From Papaver somniferum (lineage: Eukaryota; Streptophyta; Magnoliopsida; Ranunculales; Papaveraceae), in NCBI RefSeq assembly GCF_003573695.1, contig NC_039361.1:91158149-91222148 (forward strand): a DNA stretch of 64,000 nucleotides, read 5' to 3'. Positions 12,531-64,000 of the stretch are shown here, in pieces (the first letter of the stretch is position 1; every line of letters begins with the position of its first letter). Position numbers and translations under genes: made by a program. The notes beneath the pieces were generated by a model, which saw only the letters and a program-made list of their open reading frames with translations, was not told the DNA's origin and made no database searches.

Positions 12531-12539
12531 AGGCGTTGC

Positions 12540-27589: not shown

Positions 27590-27856
27590 TGGATTTCTAC
27601 CAAAACTATGAGAAAAGATAGAAATCCTTTGATTGGGGATTAACCACCGATTAAGACAAACTTAATAATTTGAAATGTGTTCAAAGAGAGTTCTACAACA
27701 TATTTATATAGTCTGGGAAATCATAATTCAAGCAAGTTCTAAGAAAAGCAATCACACTAAATAAGGGAACACTCAAAAACTAAATAAGGTTACTTCTAAG
27801 AAAGAGATAGAAGATAAATAAGGAAATATGGAGTAATCGGTACTGGTGTGGCAACA
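27590..27856 (-). repeat. 3' LTR of the nested Gypsy chromovirus
   Basis: On the minus strand the unit starts TGTTGCCACACCAG at 27856, immediately after a purine-rich GGGGCCTGGGA, and can be ended at ...GGTAGAAATCCA (27590). It has a TATATAAATATG promoter-like box near 27705. The TG start is well supported by its position just past the chromodomain coding region. The CA end is tentative because the 5' LTR lies outside the window. A short LTR (~270 bp) fits Reina-type chromoviruses. Confidence 0.6.
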
Positions 27857-28011
27857 TCCCAGGCCCCTGCAAACAAGGCTTGTCCTCAGTCTGAAAGTCT
27901 GGATAATGAAGAAGAAACTCAGTAGTGTCATCCCAAGTAGCTTCATCAACCGGGCGGTCCTGCCATTTAATGAGCCAACGAGTGACGACATGATCATTAC
28001 GCTTGAACATT
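27857..28011 (-). pseudogene. Gypsy chromovirus segment 1: chromodomain
   Basis: The C-terminal chromodomain of chromovirus integrases directs insertion to marked chromatin. Here the minus-strand frame shows VVTRWLIKWQDRPVDEATW followed by FLLHYPDF and ends near the LTR. The beginning of the domain is at 40181-40200, across the CACTA insertion. The reading phase is continuous when the insert and one ATT are removed. Confidence 0.85.
28009..28011. repeat. 3-bp target duplication ATT, left of CACTA element 1
   Basis: ATT here and at 40181-40183 flank the element, the duplication length usual for CACTA transposons. Confidence 0.7.
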
Positions 28012-28601
28012 ACTAGTACAAAAAGTGCATTGGCCACACTTAATCACCGTGTCCATAGGCTTTTGGTCATGAATTTTTTTCACTCCAAAAATGTGGCATC
28101 AGGTGCCGAGACAAAAAGGTATCCCTATGGATACATAAACTTTGAGTGGCTATAAAATATGATTTACCATGGTCATAACTCTAAAACCGTGTCTATATGG
28201 TACTCAATTTTTTTTTGTAGTTAAGCATTTTCACTATCACCATGGCCATAGGATCTTATAGACACACAATTTAATTATATGTGGCTAAAGTTCACCTTAA
28301 ATTCACGTGAAGTTTATTATAGCCGTGGCCTTTGTCATCAATTGGACACGCAAATTCATTTTATCATGACAATTTATGAGTTGCAGTCACACTAATTTTT
28401 CTCAACCATGGCCATCTCTATCATTTGGACACACGGAAAATAATTTAACATGGCTAATACATGATTTGTAGTCACGTTTAATCTATGGTACCATGGCCAT
28501 CCATATTTTTGGACACATGATAAACATTTTACATGGCCAATTAATAAGTCATGGATACTAAAAATTGGTAGCACCGTGGCTAAATTTTTTCGAAAGACAA
28601 T

Positions 28602-28684
28602 CAAGTGTTTTGAATGTAGCTATTTGTTCACCTTTTTGACACATCAAGTGTTTTCAATGTAGCTATTGTTCACCTTTTGGACAC
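28602..28684. repeat. Small tandem duplication in the subterminal region
   Basis: TCAAGTGTTTTGAATGTAGC and its one-mismatch copy lie about 41-43 bp apart, each followed by a TTCACCTTTT block. Element 2 has only one copy at the corresponding place (near 43470). Confidence 0.6.
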
Positions 28685-28799
28685 ATAGGATACCACAAAA
28701 CATGGCGATAACCTTTATAAAATGACACAAAACGTATTCAACGTGGCAAATATTAGCTTTTAGTCACTCGAGAAAATTGCAATTTTATCCTGTGTGGCA

Positions 28800-31660
28800 G
28801 AGATTATATTAAAATTATAATTGATATGATAATCATTGATCCAAAATATTTTTTATTATCACATGAGGACATATCTTTGGTAAGTTGAGCAGAACTCGAA
28901 AAAACACCATTTCAGATGGAGATTCCATAATTAAAATTTTACATGGTAAATCCATAGTACCACGAATATTTATCTGTAACTAGACTGCATCTTTATTCTC
29001 TTACTAATTCTCTTATTCAGTCCCCCATATTGCAGATCCGAAGCTTTAGAATTCTTCTTAATCTTCTTGGTCTTTGGGTATGTCATCACATTTATCTTCC
29101 TAGTCTTCTTAAGATTTAGTTTATTCTCTTTCCATCATCATGAAACTCAAATTATAACTTATTACTTTGGAACAGTTGTAGCTGTCAAAGACAACACTAG
29201 TACCAGTCAAAGCCAACACTGATACCCCATGAACGTTATAGCTTACAGACGAAAGGTTGGGATAGCTGGCCCTAAAGAAGTGCATGGAAAAACATTGGGA
29301 GTTTGGGACTATAGATAAAGTATATTGATAAACTACTGAAACTGATATATTAGAATGACATTCTCTACTGTTAAGAAAAACTAAGAAACAAAAGTTCTTC
29401 ATTTTGTTAGGTGCATTACCTTGTTATGTTGTCGTCGCATACTACCTAATAGCTACGAGGTACCATCTGATAAAAAAAAACATCTCCACCTGGAAATGAC
29501 AAACTCTACCATTAATGAAGTATCCATCTTGACAAACTGATTAAACATAATTAAATTTATATGGATAGGACGCAGAATATATACATACCTCACCTATGGA
29601 AAATAGATTCAGTAAACCATACAATGAGATTCAATAAACCTTGACAATCAGTTATGGAAGTAACCTTAATGACGACTCTCGTAAGTTGAATCTAATGATA
29701 AAATCAGAATATACAAGTCAGAATATATATTCTAAGTTTACTTCCCTTTAAGTTTTATGGTTAAAAACATAAATATCCAACAACATGATCAAATTTAACC
29801 CCATCGTAGTTCTACCAAGCGTATATTCTCGGGTGTTCCACATACCAAAAAGGATAAAGCAGTTACCTTTTTCCTGACTTCTAATGCTTGAGTGGATGAC
29901 ATATATTTTACAGTAATCCCTTTTCCTTAAGTGCATATATAACTTGATTTCCCTATTAAGGCATGACATCAATATGATTATATATAACCCTTCAAAGCCG
30001 AAAGAGAACTCCAGATAAATAGATAGATTTTATATAATTGGGAGACATTGCACGCATACTACCGAAGTTGTCAAAGGAATCCAAAAGACAAACATAAACA
30101 GTTGGAATGAACACAACATGAACTGACCTCTTCTGTAAGCTTGAATTTTTAACCATCAGAAATGCATAAACATGGAAAACTGCTTACGCCTATTAGTGGA
30201 GAAACATCAAGATCAATTCTTATTTTTGCGGGACAATATCTGGTGACACATGGACTTCCCCCCCTCCAATTAGCATGAGACAAAAAAATAATCCCTACAT
30301 TAAAATGGATAGAAAAAAGATCCAGTACAAATGCATGTTTATAAAGAAATACGGGCACAACATAAATAACTTCTATAATGATATCTAATACTCAAGGTGC
30401 CTGTCAGTTAAACACGAGGTGATAGTATTGAATTTTCAACCTATACAGTCACTATTCTAAATCGTGACTCAAAACTTTTGTAGCTTATTCGCTACATTGA
30501 GTTGTATAACTTGCAAAAAAGAAGACTTTGACAAGAATTACCAAGATGGTTATAACTTTTGATAGATCCATCAGAACTGGTGCTATCACCATCACCCTTT
30601 AACTCTCCTTCAAATTCTTCAAGGCTTTAGTCAGCATACCCATCATAGTTTGACTCTCCACTCATATTCTCGTGTTTAGTCAAATCAGAAACTACATATA
30701 TGATTGAACATGAACATAATTAAGATAATATGAGTGACTCAAATTTAGGCTCTGTGACAACAAACATTATATAACAAAAAAATCAAGCATAATGTTGATT
30801 TGATTACGAAACATACTATTATGACCTAACATTTGAGTTGATGAGCATGCCTGGTATTCAATAGAACATTGTAGATCACTCAATTCATGAAAGGAAAAAC
30901 TTTTTCTTATCTAAATATGAAAAAACGAACTATAAGCTTATTTTCATTGCCGGACAACAAACAATGTACTTATTATTACTCAGAAAATTGAACATCTTAG
31001 GAAACTATTGAATCAGAATCAAATTGAACAAACATCTAGGTTATTAGGGGATAAGCCAACAACAGTAGAATCCGGAAGAGTAAACCCACAGGATTGAAAG
31101 ATAAAATTGAACTATTTTACCCAAAATATAAAAACACCTAGAATATATTCCTTACAAGATTAAGATTAATATTTAGTAGAAACTAATTTGAGAATCATAC
31201 CAGTAAAAACACCATAATCCAAATCAGATAATTTCCCTGTCATCAAAAATTAAAATCAATTAGGGTTTGAATCAAAAATCAATTTTAGGGTTCACTTTCT
31301 AGTTGAAGAAAATCGTGAAGAAAATATACCTCAGAAAGATGGATATAAAATTGGATGCAATTCTTCATGATTTTGGGGCTTTTACTTGTACAGATTCACA
31401 CCAAGTGGGAATAATCCCGACCAAAAGATTTTTCATTTGATTTTCATGTCGCTCAAAGATATTTGGGGTTAACTGAAAAGAAAATTGAGTTTTGTTCTTC
31501 GATTTCTTCTTTCAGAAAAAATTTCCTAAGATTCTGACCTGATTTCCTAAGGTTTTCCTTTTTCTTTCCCCTTGAATGAGCGGAGGTAACGAGAAAGAGA
31601 TGCTGGATAGGAGAGTGAGGTGACATAAATTTCTTTTTTAGGGTTTTGATGTTTGGACGG
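28800..31660. other. CACTA element 1, left internal region, no gene recognised
   Basis: Mostly non-coding sequence. Between 31240 and 31640 the minus strand looks like a promoter or 5' leader (pyrimidine-rich, with several ATTAGGGTTT-like blocks) but no convincing exon follows. The block 31105-31320 is conserved in CACTA element 2. Confidence 0.4.
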
Positions 31661-32030
31661 GCAGATTTTTTTTTTCGTCGGCTAAAGCTGGATCCAGACC
31701 CCTATACAAATACGGCGAGTTGGACTGGCCCCATTGCCGATCAAATCCTGCCAAAACAGGCCCCTACCCAAATCCGGCGAGTTGGACTGGCGCCATGCCC
31801 GACCAAACCCAGCCAAAACCCCGGTACAACTAAATTTAAACCTTTACGGCATGGATTGAACCCCTGAGCTTTGTCCTTGGACCAAATAATAAGAAATAAA
31901 GGAGAGGTGGGCCCTCTGAGCTATGCCCTTACACCGAAAAATAAGAAATGAAGGAGGTGGGCTTTGAACCCATGACCTCTGGAATGTATGCAAGAGCTCC
32001 ATCCTGAGCCATCCGCTGGTTGTTTTTAGT
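31661..32030 (-). mobile_element. tRNA-headed SINE(s) inside CACTA element 1
   Basis: The poly-T at about 31667-31675 on + and the body (ACCCAAATCCGGCGAGTTGG) match the SINE at 7305-7528. A head with TAGCTCAGAGGG and GGGGTTCAATCC lies at about 31845-31925 (-). An adjacent second tRNA-like head (GGCTCAGGATGG, GGGTTCAAAGCCC) lies at 31940-32025. The body contains a ~65-bp internal duplication (the GGCGAGTTGGACTGG block twice). Limits of the second unit are uncertain. Confidence 0.65.
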
Positions 32031-32779
32031 TTGAGGTTTAGTCACACGGATTATAAAAGTTGCTGAACGAAGGATATTTGTCTTGGAGTTTTCATACGGA
32101 TTAAGGTAATGGTAGAAAGCACGAGGTTCCAATAAAATAAACAACCTCTAAAATCAGGTGAATTCATCTTAAATGGATCCGTGTAAATCACTAAGCGTAT
32201 CTAATGAGATTTAATGTATCTCAAAATTGGATGAATTTTTCTTTGAATCGATCATATATATTTCGAAGTATATCTGATGGGTTAAATTAGAATAAACAAG
32301 AATAATATGAGTGTGAATGAATTTGAACAATAAATGATTCATGTGGGTTGCCCCGATTGATAAAAGGCACAGGAGAAGGAACTAGGTAACTTTTACTTGA
32401 TTTCAAATATACGAAGTTGGTAGTAGTTTTATATAGTGTTTTAATTCTGAAAGTATTCAAAACTGGACTAGGTCCGAGGTTATTCTGCATTTGCGGTTTT
32501 CTCGTTAACACAATCTTGTGTTGTGTGATTTACTTTACTTCTGCACTATTTAGCTTGTCTTTATAATTAAAGTAAATACACTTAACGTTAATCGTCAGTT
32601 GGTCAGATCACATTTGTTAGTTCAACCTGAACTAAACTTTTTCCAAGTGGACACCTCATTGAAATAATATTTTAGTGATTGTTGCTTAAAGAAGATTATA
32701 CAAGGTGGGTCTTGAATAGGTTGTATCTATAAAGATTGTAGTGTACTTGTGTACCCTCGTCATTCACTGGATAACCCTT

Positions 32780-33310
32780 AGTTTTACTGATTATCCACAA
32801 ATTTAATCCAATTTTACTCAACTTTACTCAATTCCATCAAATTATACTAAGAATCACTACATACTCAGTATAACCGATTTATCCACACGATTCATCTAAT
32901 TCAATCCAATTATATTCAACTTTCTTCGACAATCACTGGAACATTTACTTTGACTGATTATCCACAAATGTAATCCAAATTTACTCAATTTTGCTCAATT
33001 CCAACAGATCATAAAATCACTTGATCATACTCAATATGACAGAGTATCCACCTAATTCCATTTAATTTTATCCAATTACACATAACTTTGTTTCATAATC
33101 ATTGGATAACACTTACTTTGACTGATTATCCACAAATCATACTCCAAATAACTAGATGATACTTATTATGACTGATTATCCATCAAATCCCATGTAATTT
33201 AGTCTAATTGTACTCATTTGTATCTCAAAATCATTCGATAACGCTTATTTTGGATAATAATCCACAAATTTAAGGTTTCGATTACTAATCCACCGAAATT
33301 ATTAGATTCA
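32780..33310. repeat. Degenerate tandem repeat in CACTA element 1
   Basis: The block GACTGATTATCCACAAAT recurs with changes near 32787, 32958, 33118 and 33169, with intervening TTTACTCAATT and CACTGGATAAC blocks, at irregular spacing up to about 165 bp. Read on the minus strand it resembles the repeats of CACTA element 2 at 47.7-49.1 kb (TGAGTATGA and AGTGATT blocks). Confidence 0.6.
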
Positions 33311-33879
33311 GATTATTGGAAGAACAATTTTTTGCAAGTGTTTCTTAATTTAAACATATTTTTTGGTATAAAAAAATAAAAAACAACCAAGAAATCCGAG
33401 TTAGGTTGGAATTAGATTGCATCCATTTGAATCTAATATATGTTAATCAATTTCATCGAATCATGTTCACTTCGACCTCAATTGCACCCACCCGATCTCG
33501 TTTGAACTTGTCCGGTCAGTAATGAGTTTCATATTTATCGATTTCGATGATGTATGATGCTAAGTTTGAAGTCAGAACCCTCTCGGAGCTTCTTGGTTCA
33601 TAGTTTGTATGCTTCTTGAGTCTAGCAGTGTGAACTAAAGTGACTTCATGACCTTTACGACTAGTCGAAATTACTTCATGACCTATATGACTAGTCGAAA
33701 TTCAAACCGGAAGCACAAAGAAAAAGCACAAAAGCATAATGAGAAAAACACTTACCTTGATCCGTATGACAGTCTTAAATTGATAATCTGGCCAATAGAA
33801 AGCCAAATACATCTGATCCAACGATCATGATTGCATCTTTATGAAGTCATACGGATTACCACATAAAATATCTAGAACC

Positions 33880-36620
33880 ATCTAAATTTGCCGCGATAGA
33901 TTATTGTGGCGCAGTGTTTCCCACCAAAACTTTCACCAAATTCCTTTTTCCCTCCACTGAAAACCCTAGGCATATAATTCGTTATCTAAACTAACCCTCA
34001 CTCTCTCTGCTAATCTTTCCTCTATCTCCAACCCGCTACTCCTCTCGCAACAAAGAGAAATAGTTCTAGTAAAAAGAAATAGCCGTGGTTCTTCTTCTTT
34101 CAATATCTATCTTATATCTCAACGATGATGAATGTATGTTTTTGAGTTGAAATATAAGATTTCAAAGTTATGATTTTGTTGTTTTTTTCTTCAATTTATA
34201 TCAAATCAAAGTTAGGGTTTGGACAAATCTTTGTTAAATTAGAGATTGTGGATTTAGGGTTTCTACAATTCTGTGTTCAAATTAGAGATTTGGAGTTAGA
34301 TTTTTAGAAATCTCTGTTAAAATTAGAAGTGGGTTTTGATTCAATTAGATATTTTGGATTTCTACAAAGAAAATTTAATCATTTTTTTTTTCTATTTTCT
34401 ATAAATCTCGGTGGGTTTGATTGTGAAAATCAGGTATGATGCTAATTTTTTGTTTATTGCTATGTTGTTTATAAAATGGGTTTTAATATTTGGATTTTTG
34501 GATTAGGTCTTTTAAGTTTTGTTTTGGATTTTGATTTAATAGGAGAATTTGCGTTTTTGTGATGTTGGTTTTGGTAATAGAGATGAATTAACTTTTCAAT
34601 TTGCGTGATTTATGTTCATAAGGACTTAATCGAAAATATATTGCTGATAATTTTGGTTATATGCATGTATGAATGTAATGATGAGATCTAAAACAAGTCT
34701 ACCGATCAAAGATTTCATGGCATCATATGAGTCTGAAGCAATGTGTGTAGCATAGATGTGACTTGAGATATAGAACAGGTTAGGGGTTTAATTGCAAATC
34801 AACTCCTTTGGTCTGCTGATAACTTGATGTCCTTTATGTTTTTGTTGAAATGATTAACTAGAATCTGCTTGGTTGTTATAAATAGGTATACTAGGAGAAG
34901 CGTTGATTACTTAATCCATGCTTAGCATTTTATAACACGTGGTAGTGAGATTTCATGGACTCTTTGAAGTATGCTATCTGTATCCTTTTGACATGTCAAC
35001 TGATATTATTTACTTTTATTCACAAATTATCCAATACGTGCATGGAAAATGCATTTGATAAAATCTTCAACGATACGATTAATGTAACCTCCTCTTAGAT
35101 TTAGGTTTTACAGTAAGCACCCGCAGGCATGAAAAAAGCCAAAAAATTTCGTTACTTTTCACCGTGTTCATTCAATAATAGACTTCTTATTGCAAGTTGA
35201 AAGTTGTGATTTAAATTCCCTTACCAGTCTTTTGCTTTTCAACTCTCATATGACACCGCAACAATTGTTTGCTTTTGCCTTCACACAATCACTCCAGATT
35301 ACTTATTTTGACCTGTTCAGATGTCACTTGCATGGAGTTGCCATTTTGTCCCAAGATTGATATTTTACCGTCTATGTAAAGTTTGATATGTGTCCATTGT
35401 TTTGATGATTGATAGATTGCAAGCTAATCAGTTATGACCTCACTACTAAAGACCAAAATGTATGTCGCTTAGACAGCTAAAGAATTACACAATGTACGTA
35501 GACATTAAATATCAATATGGACAAACAGTTGTAATGAAGGCAGAAATTATTTTATTTTTTTGGTGAGATTTCTAGGGCTTGATTTGTTGCTGCTGTGAAA
35601 TTAATGTACATTTTAGTTTTTTTTTAAGGAGCAAAGTATGGGGTTTCAAGTATTTTTATAGCTCTTAATGTGTTGTTGTTGTATTGTAGGTGGGGTCCGC
35701 TAGCTAAAGCAAGCTGCTTACGAGAATCGTCAACGTCTTCACCTTTCTGAACAGGTATACACTAATTTCGTGTTCGGTTTTTGCCTAGGCTGGATTAATT
35801 AAGTAGTTACAACTGTTTGTCCAATGAAATTTTTATTGGTAATTGCAAGACTTGTAAGTCAGGGGATATACAACTTTTTTGAACTGAAATATATGTATTA
35901 GTTATTACAAGGCTTGTATTTCAGAATTGATCTATCAATTTCTGCCTTCATTAATACATTTTTTTTAGAAATGTAGAACTTGTAATTGCTGGTAGACGTA
36001 TAATGGCGGTATATGCTTTGAGTGATTTTTTTAAACATAAAGAAATTGAAGTGCAACAGATGTAATTGATTTATTTGTTCCCCTGCGTTTCAGAATGGAT
36101 AAATCCTGGATGAGCACCTGTCACCTGCACTTAGGATTTGAATATATGCTGAAACTTGGTGCATAATGAACCCTGGAGAACGAGGTCATTGTGTTTGATT
36201 TGGATGGATATAAAATGATTATGTAGTGTGTTAGTGTGTCTCTGGCTCTCTGCACTTAGTTGAAGTGGGCATTTCATTTTTCTTAGTGACTTAATTTTTT
36301 TTTTTTCTGTGTTGTATTTTTGTTAGTGTTCCTTATCTTTTTCAATTTAGGCCTGATGACTTTACTGTATATGCAGGTGTGCAGATGCTTCAACAGATTC
36401 ATCATTGAGATAACAACAAGATCAATTGGCTACTCGAGGATACGCAGAGTTCCTTGACATCATTGAGACTGCCTATCATTCCAAGATTGACATCATTAGT
36501 TGTTGAAGACTGCAGTTGAAACATCTACAATGTGGCTTAGTAAGAAATTCCTCTCCAGTCTTATGTACTTGAAGGGATGAGATATGTACATTTCATGCTT
36601 GGGTACTTATTTCTGGAATA
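33880..36620 (+). other. Gene-like but non-coding region of CACTA element 1
   Basis: 33940-34140 looks like a plant 5' leader (AACCCTAGGC, CTCACTCTCTCTGC) followed by T-rich, intron-like sequence. Near 36375-36540 a short exon-like stretch follows a CAG acceptor-like site. No frame longer than about 60 codons and no domain is visible, so I call no gene. A decayed or captured transcription unit is possible. Confidence 0.35.
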
Positions 36621-37636
36621 AGTGAGTTTTTTTTTTGAACAAATTTTAAAACCTCCAAGAATTTATTAGTACAACATTTGAGTTGATAAAAATGAATAAA
36701 GGAATCTAAAATTAGTGGTTCTCTTTTCAGTGAGTTGAATGTAATCGTGTTCTAGTAGTGCAACTACTCTGAACCATCATCTAAAATGTTAATTTCCATA
36801 TGTAAAACTATAAACTAGTTTATAATATTATGTAAGGCTCCAAAAAAAGTTTAAGATACGTTTTCATATTTAAGATTGTCATCAATGACCTATTTTTGAT
36901 TTTGGTGTGGTCATCAGTGATGTGATTTGAGAATTCTAGGAAAAAGTAACACAATAACTCCACTATGAATGTCTTATTTTCACAAAATACCCAGCTGCAC
37001 CCGCTGTATTGCAATTCCTTTGGAACACAATCAATATATCCTTCTAAGACCAGAGCTTCAGGTTTTTGTATTGCAGTGAACAAGCATAGACATTATGCCA
37101 CGCTGATGTAAATGATCTGGGTTACAGTGGATAAATCCTGGTTTTTTCGTTCTAATATTTCCGTTACTTTGGCCATATAAAAGTATTTCATCTGGGTTGC
37201 AATATGTGCCTAATGAACTGAAGGCTATGGTCACATAAACAAAATCATTGTGGCCATATAGTAATCCTCCCAGAAAAATAAGTGGTGTAGCAATATGTTA
37301 ATCTTTTGTCATGTTTTTTTAAAATGTGTCCGTTTCAAAAATGTAAATGTTTAAAAAACCATGTAATATGGACACATAAACAAAAAGTGGCTAAATAAAT
37401 ATGTTTTCGTCACGGGTTGATAATTGTGTCTATTGCCATCCTACACATTTGACACATATATAATTCCTAAATGTGGCCATATTCGCATCTATGGCTACAT
37501 GTGATGGGATTAGACTGAAAAGTATGGATAAACAATTCCCTATGGCTACCGTTGATGGGTTTATGATTAAACCCATGACCAAATGGTGCACTATGGCTAC
37601 AAGGTAACACAAAACGTGGCTATAGTTATGTTGATG

Positions 37637-37641
37637 ACCAG
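37637..37641. repeat. 5-bp target duplication ACCAG (solo LTR 1)
   Basis: ACCAG here and at 40100-40104 flank the insert. The uninterrupted equivalent in CACTA element 2 (near 54000) reads GATGACCAATAGCC, confirming the empty site. Confidence 0.9.
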
Positions 37642-47725: not shown

Positions 47726-47730
47726 AGTCG

Positions 47731-53050: not shown

Positions 53051-53075
53051 TCTTCTTCTTCTTCTTCTTCTTCAA
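53051..53075. repeat. (CTT)n microsatellite
   Basis: About eight CTT units in a row. Confidence 0.85.
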
Positions 53076-54079: not shown

Positions 54080-54082
54080 ATT
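54080..54082. repeat. 3-bp target duplication ATT, right of CACTA element 2
   Basis: Matches 42875-42877. Confidence 0.85.
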
Positions 54083-55317
54083 AATGTAGAATTTCATACG
54101 ATCTTGAGCAAAATGTAGATGGTGTTTGAGAAGATGCAAAGTACGGTCTCGAGCTCTTAGAGATAAATACACAACATTAACAGCAAGATGTACCAGGAAA
54201 GTAAGCAGAAATAGTTGGCGGTGGTCTACTGTATAACGCTTCAAATGGAGTCATTTGAATAGCAGAGTGAAAAGAAGTATTGTACGACCATTCATCCCAT
54301 GGTAACCATCGAAACCAGTCATGAGGTTTCTGACTGGAAAAACAACGAAGATAACATTCTAATGTACGGTTTGTAACTTAAGTTTGGCCATCCGTTTGAG
54401 GGTGATATGCTGAGTTCCGGCAAAGTTGGGTACCATGAGAAGAAAAGAAAGCTTCCCAAAAATTACTTAGAAAGATAGGATCACGATCACTTACAATGGT
54501 ACGAGGCATTCCATGAAGACGAGCAATATCGCGTACAAAAACATCAGCGACCACAAAGGCATTGTATGGATGAGAAAGTGCAGTAAAGTGTGCATACTTG
54601 GAAAGGCGGTCAACTACTACCATTATTTATTTCGCCGTTATGAAGGAGGTAACCCATCAATAAAATCCATAGAAACATCAAGCCAAACGTCATCAGGAAT
54701 AAGCAAGGGTTGGAGGAGACCCGGTGTAAAGATTGATTCTGATTTATTACGCTGACATACATCGCAATGAGAAATACAAGTTTTAATTGCGCTTTTCATT
54801 CCCTGCCGATAGAAATTTTGCCGAGACGCTGGTACGTACGAAGGAAACCCGAGTGTCCAGCACTAGGGGTATTATGAAATTCGTGCAAGAGCTTGGTACA
54901 CCACTGAGAAGAGGGAACTACAACCACATGACCTTTATAACGAAGAACACCATCAACATACGAGTACTGTTTTTTATAGTCCGGGTTACCAAGAAGTTGA
55001 TCAATAAGCTTTCTCATTTCATCATTAGAATGACATTCTTGAATAATTTCATCAAGACTTGAAAAAATTGGAGCAGTAAGAGTAACAAAAGTATATTCAA
55101 CAACACGCGATAGGGCATCCGCAGCTACATTTTCCATACCATGACGAAATACAATCTCGTAGTCGTATCCTAACAACTTAGACAACCATTTTTGTTGCTC
55201 CATAGAAGATAATTTCTGATCCAAAAAATATTTAAGCTACGATGATCTGTATAGATTTTAAGATGTCGTCCGAGCAAATAAGGTCGCCATTTTTGAACCG
55301 CCAAAACAATAACAAGT
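54080..55317 (-). pseudogene. Gypsy chromovirus segment 4: RNase H end and integrase
   Basis: Read on the minus strand from 55317: the RNase H end (KIYTDH, then LDQKLSSMEQQKWLSKLLGY, FRHG...N.AADALSR near 55100), the integrase zinc-binding region (HNTPSAGHSG near 54880, CDVCQRNK near 54730), the integrase core start (MDFIDGLPP near 54660, VVVDRLSKYAHF, SDRDPIFLS near 54480, SAYHPQTDGQ near 54380) and a segment to the C-terminal domain (WDEWSYNTSFH near 54290, AQDRMKFYI near 54100). Stops near 54640 and 54376 and a frameshift near 54190 inactivate it. The upstream part (gag, protease, reverse transcriptase, 5' LTR) must lie beyond the Gypsy element that starts at 55318. Confidence 0.92.
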
Positions 55318-56778
55318 TGTTGATGGTGGTTTTTAGCTTAGGGTTAAAATCGTAAAACCTTAGTCAAACAGTGACGCCACAGTTGAGTAATAATGTCGCC
55401 ACTAGCACATTTATTGAACCGTTCAACATGTCTGTGTAAAATTACCGGGGTACCTTTTTTCTGTACGTATATGACATGCTCCACGGAAGAGCCCTCGGTA
55501 CTGACTGGCATCATCTCTACACATGCCAGCCACGCATGCTATCCAAACTTGCCAACGACATGCTATGCCAGCCACATCTTCGCGCCAAGGCATGCCAACC
55601 ATGCCAGCAACACCACAGTGCTAATGGCATACCATGCCAGCCACATCTGCGCGCCAAGGAATGCCAACCATACCAGCCGCACCACGGTGCCAGTGGCATA
55701 CCATGCCAGCCACATCTCCGCGCCAAGGCATGCCAACCATGCCAGCCGCACCACGGTGCCAATGGCATATCATGCCAACCACATCTCCACGCCAAGGCAT
55801 GCCAACCATGCTAGCCCCATCTCCGCGCCAAGCCATGCCAACCATGCCAGCCGCACCACTGTGCCAAAGGCATGCCATGCAAGCCACATCTTCGCGCCAA
55901 GGCATGCCAAACATGCCAGCCGCACCACTCTGCCAAAGCCATGCAACCCTACCACCATGCCGCTGGCTGCCAAACCAAGGGTTGCAACAATCAACCGCTA
56001 CCCTTCCATCTGAGATGCAGATATCAACCGTACAAGTTCGCCACCTAACGCATGGCAACTTCTGTCCCAAGGAAAGACATCATGGTTTATGCCAAAACCC
56101 TAATTTTGGCCGCGCCTAAAACATGCCAAAGCCATGCGGCCCTACCACCATGCCGCTAGCAGCCAAACGAAGGGTTGAAACAATCAACAACTACCCTTCC
56201 ATCTGAGATGCATATCTCATCCGTACAAGTTCGCCACCCGTTACCATAAGGGTGAGGCGGTTAGTAAATAAAATAAGTAATGGTGAAACGTTTTCTTCAT
56301 TATGGTAACATCAATTCCAGGCGTTACCCGTTACCATTTTCCTCCATTTACTCAACCGTTTCCACTTCTTACGAGACCATGGTACGTTTCGTCACGACTT
56401 GTATAAATAGGTCTCACCTATTTCCACCAAACACAAGTTTTTGGTCACGAGAATACAACACTCAGAAATCACTTGTTAGCTTTCCCGTCTGTTAGCTTTC
56501 CACTTTCTGATACAAGTCGTCAGAAAACTAATCTTCCCGAATGAACTATTCTGGTCTCAACACTCTCTTCGCTTCCCTCCCTAGACCAACCCTTCTCCTC
56601 CACTTTGTGACCGAAGCAAGTCTGGAACGGCCATTTCTTTGTTTAGGCCGGATTTGTACAGATTGATCTCTCGAACAAAAGTACTCCCTTGCAGTACATT
56701 GTTTAGGGTTTAGCCTCGTTTCTCACCCACACACTCGAAATTACCAAAATCAGCAAAAATTGTTTTCACCCTCAAAAA
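55318..56778 (+). repeat. 5' LTR (1.46 kb) of the Tat-like element
   Basis: It starts TGTTGATGGTGG and ends CACCCTCAAAAA; the solo LTR at 9.9-13.6 kb ends CACCCTCAAACA, so the terminal CA appears mutated. It contains about five 70-bp units at 55555-55935 and little of the 194-bp array. Compared with the 3' LTR, a block of about 1 kb is missing near 56240 (between the GTACAAGTTCGCCACC and CATAAGGGTGAGGCGG blocks). The TATA box is at 56402-56409. Confidence 0.9.
56402..56409 (+). promoter_or_regulatory. TATA box of the 5' LTR
   Basis: TATAAATA in CTTGTATAAATAGGT, conserved in all three LTRs of the family, about 370 bp before the LTR end. Confidence 0.65.
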
Positions 56779-56799
56779 ATTGGGGACCACAGTGGGAGA
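56779..56799 (+). other. Primer-binding-site position
   Basis: The sequence directly after the 5' LTR, ATTGGGGACCACAGTGGGAG, is where the tRNA primer should pair. It resembles the TTGGCGACnnCnnTGGGG-style sites of some plant Gypsy elements, but I cannot assign a tRNA. Confidence 0.45.
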
Positions 56800-56849
56800 T
56801 CAGTCTCTCGGTTACAATATCAACTTCGTCTTTCAATTCCAAACTCAAT

Positions 56850-57455
56850 ATGGTAGAACTTAGATCCGGGTCAGCAACGAACCCTGAGAACACTAGCGCG
56901 GAAACCGTCCCTGTTGCTAACACTCCTCCCATCGGCATTAACACGCCTCCTACTAATCCCAGAAGCACGGAAAGCGCTCCTTCAGGTCTTACACCGCCAA
57001 TCACCAGGGCCAGAGCTTCTGCCACCCCTAACGCTTCTACGCCGCCTACCAATCCCAGTAACACAGAAAGTGCTCCTTCAGGTGTTACACCACCAGTCAC
57101 CAGGGCCAGAGCTGCTGCTGCCGACCCTAATGTTTCATCGGGTATGGCGCCTCCGACCATCACTAGGACTACAGTTACTCCACCATCAGGACGAGAAACC
57201 GGAGGATCCATAGGAAGCCTCCCCTACATCATCATTGCTGATTTTATGGAAAGACAGGAGGTTCTTGCTAGAGCCCAGACGAACATGGCCTCGACTCAGA
57301 AAGAAGTACTTGTCTTTCTCAAGACCCTAACGGAGCAGCTACCACAGGAGCCGCGCCATCCAGAGTTGATGAGGAACACCTCCAATACCCCTGGCGCCAG
57401 CACCTCAGCAGGGCATACCTTTGTAGATGAGAAACGCACGCCAGAACCCCACTAG
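56850..57455 (+). CDS. N-terminal gag-region ORF of the Tat-like element
   Basis: The ATG at 56850 (MVELRSGSATNPE) is the first good start after the LTR; the longer open frame starts inside the LTR. About 201 codons, ending TAG at 57453-57455. Residues about 33-95 contain a 32-residue tandem repeat (a 96-bp unit: PPTNP.STESAPSG.TPP.TRARA, starting near 56946 and 57042). A probable helical stretch follows (DFMERQEVLARAQTNMASTQ). No catalytic motif is visible. In related elements this N-terminal part is fused to gag; here a stop and frame change separate it from the frame at 57539. Confidence 0.6.
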   Translation: MVELRSGSATNPENTSAETVPVANTPPIGINTPPTNPRSTESAPSGLTPPITRARASATPNASTPPTNPSNTESAPSGVTPPVTRARAAAADPNVSSGMAPPTITRTTVTPPSGRETGGSIGSLPYIIIADFMERQEVLARAQTNMASTQKEVLVFLKTLTEQLPQEPRHPELMRNTSNTPGASTSAGHTFVDEKRTPEPH

Positions 57456-57538
57456 AGAGAAATCAACCGTCCAATTTCGTCACGTGAGAAGATTTAGAAC
57501 AACTTCTTCGGAATCGAATCAAAAGTGATAATGTAGAC

Positions 57539-58807
57539 ATGCATCAGCATCAACCCCCTTATCCGCCTGAAATACAAAGAATTCCTCTTACAAGAGGATA
57601 CGCTTATCCTCAATTCACCTTATACGACGGCACCGGGAATGCATGTGAACACATATATCGATTCTTGGAGTCCCTAGGCGAGCAAGAATACAACCACGTC
57701 CTCCGTCTGAGGGAGTTTTCTAAGTCGCTTACCGTAAGAGCATACATGTGGTACAACAACATCACACTAAGCAACATCTCCAACTGGGGTGACATGGTTA
57801 CATCTTTATACAAAAAGTACTTCTTCGTGACTGAGCAGGTTACCTTCTCGGATCTAGGAAGGATGTTCCAACGAGATAACGAACATCCAAATGATTTTTT
57901 CAAGAGATTCAGGATTCAAACGCTTGACTGTCACGACCCAAACATGACCGAATATCAATTGGTGAATTCCTGCATCAACCGTATGGCTCCCATCTATCGC
58001 GCCTTACTAGAGAACCTGCGGTTCCAGACGTTCTTCGAACTCCATGAGGCTTCCAAAAGATCGGCCACGACGGCACCAGCGTTTTTAGGAAGAACCATGC
58101 TAATTATAAGTGAGGACATAAACGAAACTGGAGGAGGTAGACGTCTCGTCAACAAGCAATACAACACTGGTCCCTCCTATGTGAGCGTAGTGGACGAAGG
58201 AGGGAAAAGGAAGGCCCCAGTGGAAGATCAACAACCTAAGCGCGCGACACCAGCACAACGGGTGGCTCCGCCACAGAGGGCCGCTGCTAAGGATCCCATG
58301 CGTCTTCTTGAAGCTGGAGAAAACGCCATGGATTTCCCGCTCTCGATCGAGGAAGTGATCGAACTCTTAGAGGCATGGATCCAGGACGATGTCATCAGAC
58401 TACCACCCCCCAGACACCCACCGATCAAGGCAGATATGGAGCACCCCAAATACTGCTGCTATCACCGGTTTGTTCACCACCCGACCAGCGACTGCAACAG
58501 ACTAAAGCATATCTTCAAGGAGAAGGTAGAGGCGGGGGAACTTCAGTTAGGAAATGAGGGAGTGCACAAAGATCCCCTTCCAGTCAGAAATTACGGAATA
58601 TCTGGGGACTCCGTACACGAAACTGTACAATCCACGATGCAGCATGTGTGCGAAATTCTCTACCTTTCCAAGACGCAGCGTCAAGACATCTTCACGGCCC
58701 TCAATCGTGTTGTGTCGGGCAAACGACTTTTTCCGGTTACGAAAGCTACGCCAAAATCCCCGGCTCTTTTAGGGGACAGCGCTGTAAAACACAGCTGGGA
58801 CTACTAA
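57539..58807 (+). CDS. Gag polyprotein domain of the Tat-like element
   Basis: 422 codons, open throughout. Residues about 20-185 match the plant retrotransposon gag domain: the YPQFTLYDGTGNACEHIYRF, LTVRAYMWYNNI, LYKKYFF, FFKRFRIQTLDC and LVNSCINRM blocks. Residues about 300-318 form a zinc-knuckle-like C-x2-H-x3-H-x4-C-type motif (CYHRFVHHPTSDC). Gag forms the virus-like particle that packages element RNA. The ATG at 57539 may not be the original start, since the upstream frame (56850-57455) is out of phase. The 3' end overlaps the protease frame at about 58760-58807, in a different phase. Confidence 0.85.
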   Translation: MHQHQPPYPPEIQRIPLTRGYAYPQFTLYDGTGNACEHIYRFLESLGEQEYNHVLRLREFSKSLTVRAYMWYNNITLSNISNWGDMVTSLYKKYFFVTEQVTFSDLGRMFQRDNEHPNDFFKRFRIQTLDCHDPNMTEYQLVNSCINRMAPIYRALLENLRFQTFFELHEASKRSATTAPAFLGRTMLIISEDINETGGGRRLVNKQYNTGPSYVSVVDEGGKRKAPVEDQQPKRATPAQRVAPPQRAAAKDPMRLLEAGENAMDFPLSIEEVIELLEAWIQDDVIRLPPPRHPPIKADMEHPKYCCYHRFVHHPTSDCNRLKHIFKEKVEAGELQLGNEGVHKDPLPVRNYGISGDSVHETVQSTMQHVCEILYLSKTQRQDIFTALNRVVSGKRLFPVTKATPKSPALLGDSAVKHSWDY

Positions 58808-59493
58808 CCACGTCCTATCTAAGGGGCACTGAACTCGACAACACTTTGATCGATGCAGCCTCTGACTTCAATATCATTATCATCAAGACCCTGAGAGCTG
58901 CGGGAATTTTGAAGCAAGAGGTTACCCACTCCCCATCCGTGGTCAAGAATTCAGGAGGAGAAACGATGAACGCATACGGCTACATTAGCCTCGAAATCAA
59001 GATGGGAGATGCTATAACGCGTGGAAAATTCCACATTGTCAAAGAACTTTCAAGTTATGACATGATCCTGGGGCGTTCTTGGGTATTCGACAACAAAGCA
59101 AAATTGGGAGCATCCTCTCTACCAGTGTCAACGACCGAAATATTTTCTAACAAGCCTTCCAACCTTCTACCGTACCAACAACTTACCAATGGAACTCGAT
59201 TTCCCCAGGAAATCCCGTCCACGCTCGCTCATAGATCCCAAACGCAAGTAAGTCTGGTCAAGCAACCTTCTCTGCAACCCTTCACTTGTTCTCTTAACGC
59301 GTCATGGGGACTCGATCCGATTATCAGCACAGACACATTTAAGAGATGTGAGTGGGGTGCTAGACCCTTTAAACGCTTCACCAAGAATTTGGAAACCGCA
59401 TTCAAAGATGATGGGACCAAGAGTCAAACGGTCACACAACACTCAAAATCGTTTCAAATTGGAGACGTGGTAGTCAAGGAGACCTCATTTTAA
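58750..59493 (+). pseudogene. Aspartic protease remnant of the Tat-like element
   Basis: In the frame open from 58648 the relevant part begins near 58750. It shows LIDAASDFNII where an active retroviral-type protease has D-T/S-G-A/S, then the flap-region block ISLEIKMGDAITRGKFHIV and the closing motif YDMILGRSW (near 59055). The catalytic glycine is replaced by alanine, so it may be inactive. After about 59120 the frame no longer resembles reverse transcriptase. It instead ends with FQIGDVVVKETS, which resembles the start of an integrase C-terminal domain. Confidence 0.75.
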
Positions 59494-59508
59494 GTCGGAA
59501 ACATAACA

Positions 59509-59667
59509 ATGAGGATGGCTGTTCGAACTGGTTCGCCCGAAGAAAGGGAAGATGAGCTATATCTAGTGGCAGACATCCTCTTAGGCGGTTACTGCAAACT
59601 CATCAATGCTGATAAGTTGGAAGGCGTGACGATTCACTCACGATGGCCCAAGCCTTTCAATACCTAA
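59509..59667 (+). pseudogene. Integrase C-terminal remnant after a pol deletion
   Basis: A 52-codon frame starting MRMAVRTGSPEE contains GGYCKLINADKLEGVTIHSR and WPKPFN, resembling the last block of Tat-type polyproteins (gap, G-x-Y-x-L-x-x-x-x-G, W-x-x-x-x-L). Together with the block near 59450 it marks where reverse transcriptase, RNase H and integrase core were lost. Resemblance is from memory of the family. Confidence 0.5.
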
Positions 59668-60225
59668 ATCACGGTGCTAATTCCTCCCCCAGCGTTCTCA
59701 CTTTAGTATTTTCTTCAGCGATTTCCCTTTCCACTCAATATTTGTATCACCTCCAAGATGAATGCGCCGCGTGCATTCTTAATTAGGTTTCCGATTTCTA
59801 TTTGAAGCATACTTTTCCTTTCAAATGAGTTTTCTGGATCAAAAAAAAAACAAATAAATCCCGAAACATCGTGAAACCATTACCCATCAAATCACGACCA
59901 GAAAAGCCGAAACCCTGCAAAAGATGCCTTACTCGAAACTTTGAAGAGAAGAATATACAAGGAATCATCAGACGACAGGAAGGTATGGAATATCAAACAA
60001 CCTATTTTGGTAAAGGTTTTGGGTCCTTTAGAAAAAAATATTGTATTCAAAGGAGCTAAATAAGCGGGATGTTTGGCGAAACATAAACATCGCCATGAAT
60101 ACAAAGAAGATAAAAATGAGTCTGTGAAACATCAAAGCGGTTACACGCCTAAGAGAAACGACAAAAAGGGAAACTGGTCATCGAAAGAAGACGCCAGGAT
60201 CGCCAACGCCTCTGTCAGATCCCTT
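59668..60225. other. Non-coding spacer of the Tat-like element
   Basis: No conserved frame. Short opposing frames at 59871-60104 are unsupported. It lies downstream of the antisense ORF and could hold its 3' UTR. Confidence 0.4.
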
Positions 60226-60921
60226 TCAAGCACATTCCCCAACAATCTTTCGGACAACAAACGTTCCATTCATAACCGCCTCCGTAACAACAACTCCAAC
60301 ATCCCACCCGGAAGCCGCCTCAGCAGCAACAGTTTTCGCCTTCTGTCCAACGCCAACTTCGACAACCGTCTCAGCATATGCCACCACAGCTTCCCCAACG
60401 TCCCTGACAGCAGTTTCGGCGTCCACTCCAAAAGCTGCTTCAGTTTCGTCAACCACGACGGCGTCTTCCTCGGAAGTTTTCTCAGCAGACTTTCGAGGAT
60501 GTTCCGGTTCATCCGCACCAGAATCAAGGATTATGACACCATCTCGGGTAGGGAAATTAAGCTGGCTCTCCCCTAGAAGTTTCACAGATTCAGTCTTCCG
60601 CCGTTTCAACAGAGAGCCGAGTCGTTCAGCCCTAGCACTGGGCTGTGAAGAAGTTTCGTTTCCCTGAGGTATCTCAACGCGCTGGGATGCTTCACCATCT
60701 CCCCGCTTTTCCTCCATATCCACCAGAGTCATGAAATCCTGAGCATGCATCTGCACTCCATATAAATAGGTGGAAGGCATGTCCTGAATAATTTCGCAAG
60801 CCTCACGAAACAGAGAATTAATTCTGTCCAATGCCTCCTCATGAGAAGAAGACCAGTTTTCGTCGATCCCAAAGCTTCTCTCCGAAGAGTCAGAGGTACG
60901 ATTGTCACTGGAAGATCCCAT
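60226..60921 (-). CDS. Antisense ORF between pol remnant and 3' LTR (hypothetical)
   Basis: An uninterrupted 231-codon frame opposite to gag and pol, ATG at 60921 (MGSSSDNRTSDSSERS). It has an N-terminal Ser-rich part, a helical-looking stretch (residues about 28-60, EEALDRINSLFREACEIIQD), a basic cluster LLKRRKTES (about 104-112), and an Ala/Val/Glu-rich C-terminal half. I recognise no domain. Some Tat-lineage elements (for example Grande) are known to carry an antisense gene in this position, which supports a real gene, but homology is not shown here. The C-terminal low-complexity part could be fortuitous or run into an intron. Confidence 0.5.
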   Translation of the reverse strand: MGSSSDNRTSDSSERSFGIDENWSSSHEEALDRINSLFREACEIIQDMPSTYLYGVQMHAQDFMTLVDMEEKRGDGEASQRVEIPQGNETSSQPSARAERLGSLLKRRKTESVKLLGESQLNFPTRDGVIILDSGADEPEHPRKSAEKTSEEDAVVVDETEAAFGVDAETAVRDVGEAVVAYAETVVEVGVGQKAKTVAAEAASGWDVGVVVTEAVMNGTFVVRKIVGECA

Positions 60922-61897
60922 TATGTACTAAAAAATCAAAATACGGGTTAAGTTTTCGCCCTATCTGCACCAGCAATCTACACGAACAAGAAAAAAGACT
61001 GAGGAACCAGGAGAAAGCACGAGACGAGACTTGTAAAGAGGATAGACGTGATTTCAAGACGATCTGTACGAACGAAGGATTCAAGATCGCCTCTTATATT
61101 CGCCTCTTATATTCAAGGATGAAATCTTTAAAAGGAAAGCTTTCTACTAGTCGTGAACTAAGGCGTGATATCGGCTGAAAAAGGTATATGTCAATGCGTG
61201 TCAATTAGGTCTTCATAAAAAATAACATAGAAATACGTGTTTGGAACACGCTGGCTTGCATTATCGCTTCTGCTCTACTGCCAGCCCCGGAACTTGGAAG
61301 CGAAACCGGCAGTATAACATGAGTAGGACAGCTAACACCTTTCATATGGACGTGATACTTTGGGATATAAATAAGGAAAGGATTTCATATCTGATCCACG
61401 CATGGAAAGAGGCAACTGGACCTGCAAGCGACGCCAACAGTCTGCGCCTCGCAAAGCCAACAGCCCGTGCCATGCCAAGCCAGCGTCGTGCCAAGCCATC
61501 GCTCATCCCAAGCCAATCCAACGCTAACGGATCCATTTCAAGTTCACCAACGCCAGCGGCTCCGTTTAAAGCCACACCATGCCAACGTCTTTCCAAGCCA
61601 AGCCGGCAACGCCAACAACTCCGCGTTCCCCAGCCTAGCCAAGCTGACGCCAAATGTTTGCATCCCGGACAGCAACCACCACTACCACTCCGCGGCCTAG
61701 CTAGTAGCGCCACGAGCAGAATCTACACAAAGCCACCAGCATAAAAATCACGAATTCTCCTTACCTCCCGAAAAAGGTTAGACGGATCTTCCTGACCATC
61801 TCTTCATGACTTTGCGTTTCGATTTTGTCCTTCTCTGTCACCATCTTATGCTTACCTCGCAACAAAGCCGTTTTTCCGAGCTAAGCAAGGCACTTAA
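60922..61897. other. 3' internal region of the Tat-like element
   Basis: Upstream region of the antisense ORF, then a GCCAAGCCA-rich low-complexity stretch (about 61440-61640) that opens frames on both strands. The bases directly before the 3' LTR (AAGCAAGGCACTTAA) are only weakly purine-rich, so a normal polypurine tract is not clear. Confidence 0.45.
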
Positions 61898-64000
61898 TGT
61901 TGATGGTGGTTTTTAGCTTAGGGTTAAAATCGTAAAACCTTAGTCAAACAGTGACGTCACACTTGAGTAATAATGTCGCCACTAGCACATTTATTGAACC
62001 ATTCAACATGTCTGTGTAAAATTACCGGGTACCTTTTTTTTTACGTATATGCCATGCACCACGACAGAGCCCTCGGTACTGAGTCGCATCATCTTTACAC
62101 ATGACAGCCACGCATGCTAGCCAAACGTGCCAATGGAATGTTATGCCAGCCACATCTCCGCTCCAAGGCATGCCAACCATGCCAGCCGCAGCACGGTGCT
62201 AATGGCATAACATGCCAGCCACATCTCCACGCCAAGGCATGCCAACCATGCCAGCCGCACCACGGTGCCAATGTTATATCATTCCAGCCACATCTCCGCG
62301 CCAAGTCATGCCAACCAAGCCAGCCGCACCACGGTGCCAAAGGCATGCCATTCCAGCCACATCTCCGCGCCAAGGCATGCCCACCATGCCAACCGCACTA
62401 CTGTGCCAAAGGCATGCCATTCCAGCCACATCTTCGCGCCAAGGCATGCCAACCGTGCCAACCGCACTACTGTGCCAAATCCATGCGTCCCTACCACCAT
62501 GCCGCTGGCTGCCAAACGAAGGGTTGCAACAATCAACGACTACCCTTCCATCTGAGATGCAGATCTCAGCCGTACAAGTTTGCTACCTAACGCATGGAAA
62601 CTTCCGTCCCAAGGCCAGACATCACGGTTTATGCCAAAACCCTAATTTTGGCCGTGCCTAAAACATGCCAAAGCCATGCGGCCGTACCACCATGCCGCTG
62701 GCCGCCAAACGAAGGGTTGCAACAATCAACGGTTACCCTTCCATCTGAGATGCAGATCTCAGCCGTACAAGTTCGCCACCTAAGGCCAAACATCATGGTT
62801 TATGCCAAAACCCTAATTTTGGCCGCGCCTAAAACATGCCAAAGCCATGCGGCCCTACCACCATGCCGCTGGCTGCCAAACGAAAGGTTGGAACAATCAA
62901 CGACTACCCTTCCATCTGAGATGCAGATCTCAGCCGTACAAGTTCGCCATCTAACGCATGGAAACTTCCGGCCCAAGGCCAAACATCACGGTTTATGCCA
63001 AAACTCTAATTTTGGGAACGCCTAAAACATGCCAAAGCCATGCGGCCCTACCACATGCCATTGGCTGCCAAACGAAGGGTTGCAACAATCAACGGCCGCC
63101 CTTCCTCCTGAGATGCAAATCTCAGCCGTACAAGCTTGTCATCAAACGCATGGCCACATTTGGCCCAATGCCAAGCACTAATTTTGTCCGCACCTAAACT
63201 ATGCCAAAATCCTAGTTTTGGCCGCACCTAAACAACGCCAAAATCCTAGCTCGGCCGCGCCTAATCCATGCCACTGGATGCAAACGAAAGGTTGCAACAA
63301 TCAACGGCCACCCTTCCTCCTGAGATACGAATGTCAGCCATACAAACTTGCCACCAAACGATTAATGGCAATCTCTTGGCCACGATGCCAAAACCCTAAT
63401 TTGGCCGTGCCAAAAGTATGCAAGCGCTGCAACCATGCCGCTGGTTTCCAAACGAAGGTTTGCAACAATCTACAACTACCCTTCCTCCTGAGATGCAGAT
63501 CTCATCCATACAAACCTGCCACCAAACGACTTGTGGCAATTCTTGGATACGATGCTAACTCTTGTTCACGACACCAACTTGGCTGCAATGCTAACTCCCT
63601 GGTCACGGCACCAACCTTGCTACGATGCCTAATCTTTGGTCACGGAACAAACTTGGATACAAATTCCAAATCCTTTGGCCACGCCACACCTAGCAACCTG
63701 CTACACGTTTTCCAAGAAAACACTCGAGACATCAAAACATGTCATAAACTGGGGGATGCTCATCAAGGTATTTGTCTGGAGGTTTACAGCGTGCGGCGTA
63801 CACTACGCCCGTTACAGGAAAGTGTCATAAGGGTGAGGCGGTTAGTAAATACAATAAGTAATGGTGAAACGTTTCCTTCATTATGGTAACATCAATTCCA
63901 GGCGTTACCCGTTACCATTTTATTCCATTTACTCAACCGTTTCCACTTTTTACGAGACCAGGGTACGTTCCATTGCGACTTGTATAAATAGGTATCACCT
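61898..64000 (+). repeat. 3' LTR of the Tat-like element (truncated by window)
   Basis: It starts TGTTGATGGTGG at 61898, nearly identical to the 5' LTR start. It contains about five 70-bp units (62130-62475), diverged units of the 194-bp array (to about 63560), and the distal block from CATAAGGGTGAGGCGG (63826) through the TATA box at 63983-63990, where the window ends. Confidence 0.9.

What the first reader, a model, noticed from the sequence alone, without database searches (positions are those of the whole stretch)
27590..64000. One chromovirus split into four internal pieces by a datable four-insertion nest
The gypsy coding strand can be followed through 27857-28011, 40181-40314, 42690-42877 and 54080-55317. 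Each of three junctions is closed exactly by one target duplication (ATT, GCAGT, ATT), with the reading phase preserved, and a fourth element interrupts at 55318. About 36 kb of window is therefore one insertion history: chromovirus first, then two CACTA elements, a solo LTR and a Tat-like element, with another solo LTR inside the first CACTA. All four primary hits fall within the 3' end of one element (RNase H end to chromodomain).
Basis: partly seen in the sequence, partly recalled or inferred. Interest (0 to 1): 0.75.

Follow-up and report, generated by a model that had tools for sequence, protein, structure and literature searches.

The report
Old plant retrotransposon interrupted by others
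A decayed plant retrotransposon has been cut into pieces by later mobile-element insertions; the history is real and readable, but such nests are ordinary in plant genomes.

Summary
The core observation holds. One decayed, minus-strand Ty3/gypsy element with a chromodomain (a chromovirus) is cut at three places between integrase core and chromodomain. Uninterrupted homologous proteins show that the pieces fit edge to edge once one copy of each target duplication (ATT, GCAGT, ATT) is counted: 0 nt off at CACTA2 (65 of 92 homologs), 1 nt short at the solo LTR (72 of 73), 0 nt off at CACTA1 (closest homolog; 4 of 68 overall). Phase is thus preserved at two of three junctions. A fourth LTR element interrupts at 55318. 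Inside CACTA1 sits another solo LTR (ACCAG duplication); CACTA2, a relative without it, supplies the empty site.

Corrections. "Datable" is overclaimed: only one LTR pair (55318 / 61898, the second cut by the window end) can be dated, K = 0.075 +/- 0.014, and nesting gives no order for the four sibling inserts. "Tat-like" is not established: gag, a weak protease trace, and no RT, RNase H or integrase in the 15 interior stretches tested. The chromovirus LTR at 27590-27856 is inferred only; nothing beyond 64000 could be read.

Nested insertions of this kind are well documented in plants. Ordinary; low interest.

The parts
27590..27856 (-). Putative 3' LTR of the chromovirus (267 bp, TG...CA)
   Evidence: inferred from TG/CA ends, a TATATAAATA stretch on the minus strand and its place next to the chromodomain ORF; no second copy available, and the 14 nt before it (GCAGGGGCCTGGGA) are not a clean purine tract
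27857..28011 (-). Chromovirus piece D: chromodomain and polyprotein end; ATT target duplication 28009-28011
   Evidence: Pfam Chromo E 0.0029, below the curated cut-off; tblastn to P0027 residues 341-380
28012..40180 (.). CACTA1 (12,169 bp with its nested LTR); left end lacks the first C of CACTA; TSD ATT 28009-28011 / 40181-40183
37642..40099 (-). Solo LTR A (2,458 bp) nested in CACTA1; TSD ACCAG 37637-37641 / 40100-40104
   Evidence: empty site in CACTA2 at 53999-54003, which reads ACCAA (one mismatch)
40181..40314 (-). Chromovirus piece C: between the SH3-like part and the chromodomain (has an internal frame change)
   Evidence: tblastn to P0027 residues 299-312 and 308-339; no Pfam match
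40315..42689 (+). Solo LTR B (2,375 bp), same family as solo LTR A, opposite orientation; TSD GCAGT 40310-40314 / 42690-42694
42690..42875 (-). Chromovirus piece B: integrase C-terminal SH3-like domain
   Evidence: Pfam SH3_Tf2-1 E 3.4e-17; P0027 residues 236-295; Ty3 polyprotein 7q5b E 0.011
42876..54079 (.). CACTA2 (11,204 bp), CACTAGTACAAA...TTTGTACTAGTG; TSD ATT 42873-42875 / 54080-54082
54080..55317 (-). Chromovirus piece A: RNase H end, integrase zinc finger and core, with several frame changes and a stop in the core
   Evidence: Pfam RT_RNaseH 3e-08, H2C2 6.1e-05 (below cut-off) and 1.9e-06, rve 1.6e-08; P0027 residues 1-234
55318..56778 (+). 5' LTR of the fourth element (end approximate, 56774-56778), with a tandem array inside; one target copy CAAGT 55313-55317
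56779..61897 (+). Internal region: gag ORF 57488-58807, weak protease trace in 58558-59493, antisense ORF 60226-60927; no RT, RNase H or integrase match in 15 stretches tested
61898..64000 (+). 3' LTR of the same element, longer array, cut off by the window end

Best explanation
One chromovirus copy on the minus strand (short putative LTR, polyprotein ORF apparently running into it, so most like the Reina clade) inserted first and decayed. Its integrase-chromodomain region received independent insertions: two related CACTA elements by cut-and-paste (3-bp ATT duplications), an LTR retrotransposon that then lost its interior by LTR-LTR recombination (solo LTR, 5-bp GCAGT duplication), and an LTR element with gag but apparently no pol at 55318. 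Another LTR retrotransposon of the solo-LTR family inserted in CACTA1 (ACCAG) and also collapsed to a solo LTR. Shown: the pieces, their edge-to-edge fit (with one nucleotide missing at one junction), the duplications and the nesting of solo LTR A in CACTA1. Inferred: the mechanisms (from established, recalled knowledge of these classes), the clade, the chromovirus LTR, and that the fourth insert's far side rejoins the chromovirus beyond 64000.
For: Domains in order on one strand. Homolog P0027 (381 aa, uninterrupted) aligns with residues 1-234, 236-295, 299-339 and 341-380 to pieces A, B, C, D taken singly. Of 120 listed homologs 68 align to all four pieces at E <= 0.01 per piece. Offsets 0, -1, 0 nt for P0027 with one duplication copy counted, and in 65 of 92, 72 of 73 and 4 of 68 homologs. 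107 HSPs of 23 picked homologs all lie in or overlap the four pieces. Termini and duplications. CACTA1 and CACTA2 share their ends at 93-95%, and CACTA2 is continuous where solo LTR A sits in CACTA1.
Against: One nucleotide is missing at or near the GCAGT junction (72 of 73), although piece A has frame changes of its own. The C/D offset is 0 in only 4 of 68 homologs; 62 of 68 values equal -1 modulo 3, as a frame change inside piece C would give, so this junction rests on the few homologs anchored next to it. The ATT duplications are short (3 bp). CACTA1 lacks its first C. The chromodomain match is below Pfam's cut-off. No transposase was found. The CAAGT junction has one side only.
Confidence: 0.93

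Rival explanations
1. The pieces come from several different chromovirus copies brought together by rearrangement or misassembly.
For: The own assembly and reads could not be examined; there is a 1-nt misfit at one junction.
Against: Against one homolog, P0027, the pieces neither overlap nor leave gaps beyond the 1 nt, and each junction is closed by a target duplication of the size usual for the inserted class.
Confidence: 0.04
2. The nest's order differs from simple layering at this locus: CACTA1 already carried solo LTR A (or its full-length parent) when it moved here.
For: Cut-and-paste elements can move with their own inserts (general knowledge); the solo LTR's empty site is known only from the related CACTA2.
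Against: No positive evidence; CACTA1's left end lacks its first base, which would hamper movement if the loss was early.
Confidence: 0.25
3. The element at 55318 is a deletion derivative of a Tat/Retand-type retrotransposon mobilised in trans.
For: gag (Pfam E 3e-05, just above cut-off) with relatives in Macleaya and Papaver records, an antisense ORF before the 3' LTR; Retand elements have antisense ORFs there, some are non-autonomous, and about half carry tandem arrays, though in the region before the 3' LTR and not in the LTRs as here (PMC11963269, passages read).
Against: The antisense ORF has no Pfam match, so no TRP28 domain, which 97% of that study's clusters have; its LTRs (about 1.46 kb and over 2.1 kb) exceed that study's range of 315-1,194 bp; the second RNase H that distinguishes Tat was not seen.
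Confidence: 0.5

Closest known systems
Nested TE insertions in plant genomes (Jedlicka et al. 2019, PMC6911290; REANNOTATE, PMC2672092)
   Same: Younger elements inside older LTR retrotransposons; the first reports 1,491 nested pairs in 12 plant genomes, the second is a tool that resolves fragments, nesting order and LTR age
   Different: Nothing in kind; here the three closed junctions are in coding sequence rather than in the preferred 3'UTR, and two of the inserts are DNA transposons
Plant chromoviruses, Reina clade (Bingo families of Beta vulgaris, PMC3605345)
   Same: Chromodomain upstream of the LTR, short LTR, ORF running into the LTR as in Bingo1 to 4 and Bingo7
   Different: Putative LTR of 267 bp against about 390-500 bp for the Bingo rows seen in the passage; no clean polypurine tract; no RT available for a tree
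CACTA (En/Spm) transposons (PMC8978399, passages)
   Same: CACTA...TAGTG ends, repeated motifs near the ends, 3-bp duplication (the last recalled)
   Different: No transposase match in the 10 stretches tested; first base missing in CACTA1
Tat/Retand LTR retrotransposons (PMC11963269, PMC6317226, passages)
   Same: gag, antisense ORF before the 3' LTR
   Different: No pol domain found, no TRP28, longer LTRs with tandem arrays

Membership tests
Chromovirus (Ty3/gypsy) | RNase H then integrase (H2C2, rve) in gypsy order | tested here: met
Chromovirus (Ty3/gypsy) | Chromodomain at the integrase C-terminus | tested here: met
   Pfam Chromo E 0.0029, below the curated cut-off, but aligned to the end of P0027, whose record carries PF00385
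Chromovirus (Ty3/gypsy) | Reverse transcriptase placing it in the chromovirus branch | not testable with these tools
Reina clade | RT or gag-pol phylogeny | not testable with these tools
   no RT in the window; clade inferred from short LTR and chromodomain position only
Reina clade | Purine tract of 7-14 purines right before the 3' LTR (given for beet chromoviruses in general, PMC3605345) | tested here: not met
   GCAGGGGCCTGGGA before the putative LTR; either the tract has decayed or the LTR boundary is wrong
CACTA transposon (two copies) | CACTA...TAGTG ends | tested here: met
   CACTA2 exact; CACTA1 lacks the first C
CACTA transposon (two copies) | 3-bp target duplication | tested here: met
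   ATT at both copies
CACTA transposon (two copies) | Subterminal repeated motifs | tested here: met
   CATGGCCA 4 and 6 times (both strands) in the left 1.2 kb of the two copies against 1 in the first 27 kb of the window; the right ends are weaker (TATGGCCA 3 and 3)
CACTA transposon (two copies) | Transposase gene (autonomous copies only) | tested here: inconclusive
   No transposase match in 10 of the 26 stretches listed (4 from CACTA1, 6 from CACTA2); the rest not tested
Solo LTRs A and B | TG...CA ends, 5-bp duplication, no internal region | tested here: met
Tat/Retand | Second RNase H domain (aRH) in pol | tested here: inconclusive
   No RNase H, RT or integrase match in the 15 interior stretches tested (5, 10; one search lists 62); an element without pol cannot show it
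Tat/Retand | Antisense ORF between pol and the 3' LTR, usually with TRP28 | tested here: inconclusive
   Antisense ORF 60226-60927 present, no Pfam match at E <= 1

The most novel reading that the evidence does not exclude
The integrase C-terminus/chromodomain stretch of this dead chromovirus was an insertion hot spot: three independent insertions fall within 312 nt, and both the CACTA family and the solo-LTR family landed there or next to it twice, so some property of the site or of the element already there attracted relatives.
Probability: 0.05. Interest if true: 0.35.

Novelty: new member of a known kind. Interest (0 to 1): 0.12.

Why it matters
It is a clean worked example of how a plant region of about 36 kb is built from successive insertions into one dead retrotransposon, with an internal empty-site control for one layer. 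It opens no new question: nested insertions, solo LTRs and LTR dating are standard, and the limits met here (sibling order unresolved, one datable layer) are general ones.

Tried and rejected
Extending past 64000 in the window's own genome: the request did not complete. IMG/VR scan with the 146-aa stretch of piece A: 5 pattern matches, no relative. Rfam: 0 matches. Pfam on 10 stretches of the CACTA interiors: no transposase, one unrelated match below cut-off. Solved structures: for piece A, Ty3 (7q5b E 0.00012, 4ol8 E 0.04) and an ATP synthase chain at E 0.96; for piece B, Ty3 only (E 0.011). Insertion clustering as a finding: not supported. With 4 random insertions three fall within 312 nt in 21% of trials for a 2-kb element, 8% for 3.5 kb, 4% for 5 kb and 2% for 8 kb, and more often if further insertions lie outside the window (e.g. 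17% for 6 in 5 kb). Dating the solo LTRs by their mutual divergence (K 0.353): rejected, this measures family age. Whole-LTR divergence of the fourth element (K 0.174): rejected, because array copies are probably aligned out of register.
Full report
What was checked. The finding says that one Ty3/gypsy chromovirus is split into four pieces by a nest of insertions. I translated the four stretches on the minus strand and scanned nine stop-free parts separately against Pfam. In polyprotein order the hits are RT_RNaseH (E 3e-08), Integrase_H2C2 (profile positions 6-30 in one frame, E 6.1e-05 and below the cut-off, and 31-58 in the next frame, E 1.9e-06) and rve (1.6e-08) in 54080-55317; SH3_Tf2-1 (3.4e-17) in 42690-42875; and Chromo (0.0029, below the curated cut-off) in 27783-28010. 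The piece 40181-40314 has no Pfam hit, nor have two of the stretches of piece A.

Do the pieces belong to one element? A homolog search with the integrase core part of piece A gave 1,740 proteins, the best 120 listed. The best, P0027, is one uninterrupted protein with integrase, SH3 and chromodomain. Aligned to the four pieces one by one it covers residues 1-234 (A), 236-295 (B), 299-339 (C, in two frames) and 341-380 (D). tblastn of 23 proteins that I picked from the 120 for their chromodomain, against the whole window, gave 107 HSPs: 62 in A, 22 in B, 19 in D, 3 in C and 1 across the A/CACTA2 edge; sorted by their low coordinate, none lies elsewhere, though at least two run over a junction into an insert. 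Among all 120 listed, with each piece searched on its own at E <= 0.01, 120 align to A, 92 to B, 73 to C, 72 to D, and 68 to all four.

Do the junctions fit? For each homolog I took the identical residues nearest to either side of a junction and compared their spacing in the homolog with the spacing in the window after subtracting the insert and one duplication copy (the numbers here are, which used the stricter E for piece C). A/B (CACTA2): 0 nt in 65 of 92; 20 of 92 give +1, and their anchors lie at 54188-54203, beyond a frame change inside piece A; 7 of 92 scatter. B/C (solo LTR B): -1 nt in 72 of 73. C/D (CACTA1): P0027 gives 0; over 68 homologs only 4 give 0 and the commonest value is -7 (25 of 68). 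In the 40 rows printed, the three with 0 are anchored at 40185-40188 and the other 37 at 40268-40280, and 62 of all 68 values equal -1 modulo 3, as expected if a frame change and a length-variable stretch lie inside piece C; P0027 shows that frame change there. So the pieces are edge to edge, and the claim that the reading phase is preserved holds at two of three junctions. One nucleotide is missing at or near the GCAGT junction. Piece A alone already has several frame changes and a stop in the integrase core, so this is ordinary decay.

The inserts. CACTA2 is 42876-54079, with CACTAGTACAAA...TTTGTACTAGTG ends between ATT and ATT. CACTA1 is 28012-40180, with the same ends but without the first C, also between ATT and ATT. 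Solo LTR B is 40315-42689 (TG...CA) between GCAGT and GCAGT. Solo LTR A, 37642-40099, lies inside CACTA1 in the opposite orientation between ACCAG and ACCAG. The CACTA copies share 93% over the left 0.63 kb and 94-95% over the right end but little of their interiors. CACTA2 runs continuously through the point where solo LTR A sits in CACTA1, reading ACCAA there, which makes it an empty site from a relative. The motif CATGGCCA occurs 4 and 6 times in the left 1.2 kb of the two copies and once in the first 27 kb of the window. No transposase was found in the 10 stretches tested, out of 26 listed.

The fourth element. It begins at 55318 with an LTR that recurs at 61898 and runs off the window. 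Comparison with a related solo LTR at 9895-13575 puts the LTR end at about 56774-56778. The interior has a gag ORF (Retrotrans_gag E 3e-05) with five relatives found, among them records of Macleaya cordata and Papaver somniferum, a weak aspartyl-protease trace (E 0.038, below cut-off), and an antisense ORF without a Pfam match. None of the 15 interior stretches submitted (5, 10; one search lists 62 of 40 aa or more) matched RT, RNase H or integrase. Retand elements have antisense ORFs before the 3' LTR and some are non-autonomous (PMC11963269, abstract and passages), and Tat elements are distinguished by a second RNase H (PMC6317226, passages). The label Tat-like is therefore possible but not shown.

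Dating. In two stretches outside the tandem array, chosen by me, the two LTRs differ at 29 of 406 sites, K2P 0.075 +/- 0.014. With 1.3e-8 per site per year, the rate used in PMC7251063 (abstract and two sections read), that is about 2.9 million years (1.8-4.0); with a slower rate of 7e-9 (recalled) about 5.4 (3.4-7.4). This uses only part of the LTRs and assumes no gene conversion; in the same study 25% of nested pairs (1,042 of 4,126) had a nested element with more diverged LTRs than its host. The two CACTA copies differ by K 0.05-0.07, which bounds their common ancestor and not either insertion. The solo LTRs differ by K 0.353, a family age. The chromovirus itself cannot be dated here. Nesting makes the chromovirus older than its inserts, but the four inserts into it are siblings without an order, and solo LTR A could have been aboard CACTA1 before CACTA1 came here. 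The word datable is therefore too strong.

The chromovirus end. A stretch 27590-27856 with TG...CA ends and a TATATAAATA stretch is a likely 3' LTR, and the chromodomain ORF stays open to 27783, that is, into it. In beet, the ORF of several Reina-clade (Bingo) families runs into the LTR, with LTRs of about 390-500 bp in the rows seen, while in the CRM clade the chromodomain lies downstream of the polypurine tract (PMC3605345, abstract and passages). This suggests a Reina-like element. The purine tract expected before the LTR is not clean, so the LTR boundary stays unproven.

Clustering. The three closed junctions lie at 422, 553 and 734 nt from the outer end of the putative LTR and the fourth insertion at 1,969. 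With 4 random insertions, three fall within 312 nt in 21%, 8%, 4% and 2% of trials for elements of 2, 3.5, 5 and 8 kb, and more often if further insertions exist outside the window. The length of this element and its other insertions are unknown, so this is no evidence for a hot spot, nor does it exclude one.

Verdict. Nested insertions of LTR retrotransposons are common in plants (PMC6911290: abstract and one results section read, 1,491 nested pairs in 12 genomes), and a tool that resolves fragments, order and age exists (PMC2672092, abstract). The window shows a neat but ordinary example. The organism is a plant, judging by the relatives of the elements and the NAR2 genes; gag relatives in Papaveraceae records are a hint of its kin, no more.

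Noticed in passing
9895-13575: Solo LTR (3,681 bp, minus strand, TSD CCATG) of the same family as the element at 55318, with 194-bp and 70-bp tandem arrays, lying in a LINE (endonuclease part 9435-9923 before it; RT and zf-RVT parts within 15058-16640 after it).
   Followed up: partly
55318-56244 and 61898-63825: The two LTRs of one element differ by about 1.0 kb in the part that holds the tandem arrays, so arrays inside LTRs changed in length after insertion or the LTRs have recombined with other copies.
   Followed up: partly
2951-3436 and 6324-6863: Two neighbouring NAR2-like genes (high-affinity nitrate transporter accessory protein, Pfam E 5.4e-54 and 2.5e-49), 71% alike in DNA over 470 bp: a likely tandem duplicate pair.
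   Followed up: partly
23711-26302: A second decayed LINE (RVT_1; zf-RVT) ending about 1.3 kb to the left of the putative chromovirus LTR.
   Followed up: partly
37642-40099 and 40315-42689: Two solo LTRs of one family in opposite orientation, only 215 bp apart, one inside CACTA1 and one in the chromovirus beside it; a large inverted repeat, 79% alike over 1.26 kb and 72% over 2,287 aligned sites.
   Followed up: partly
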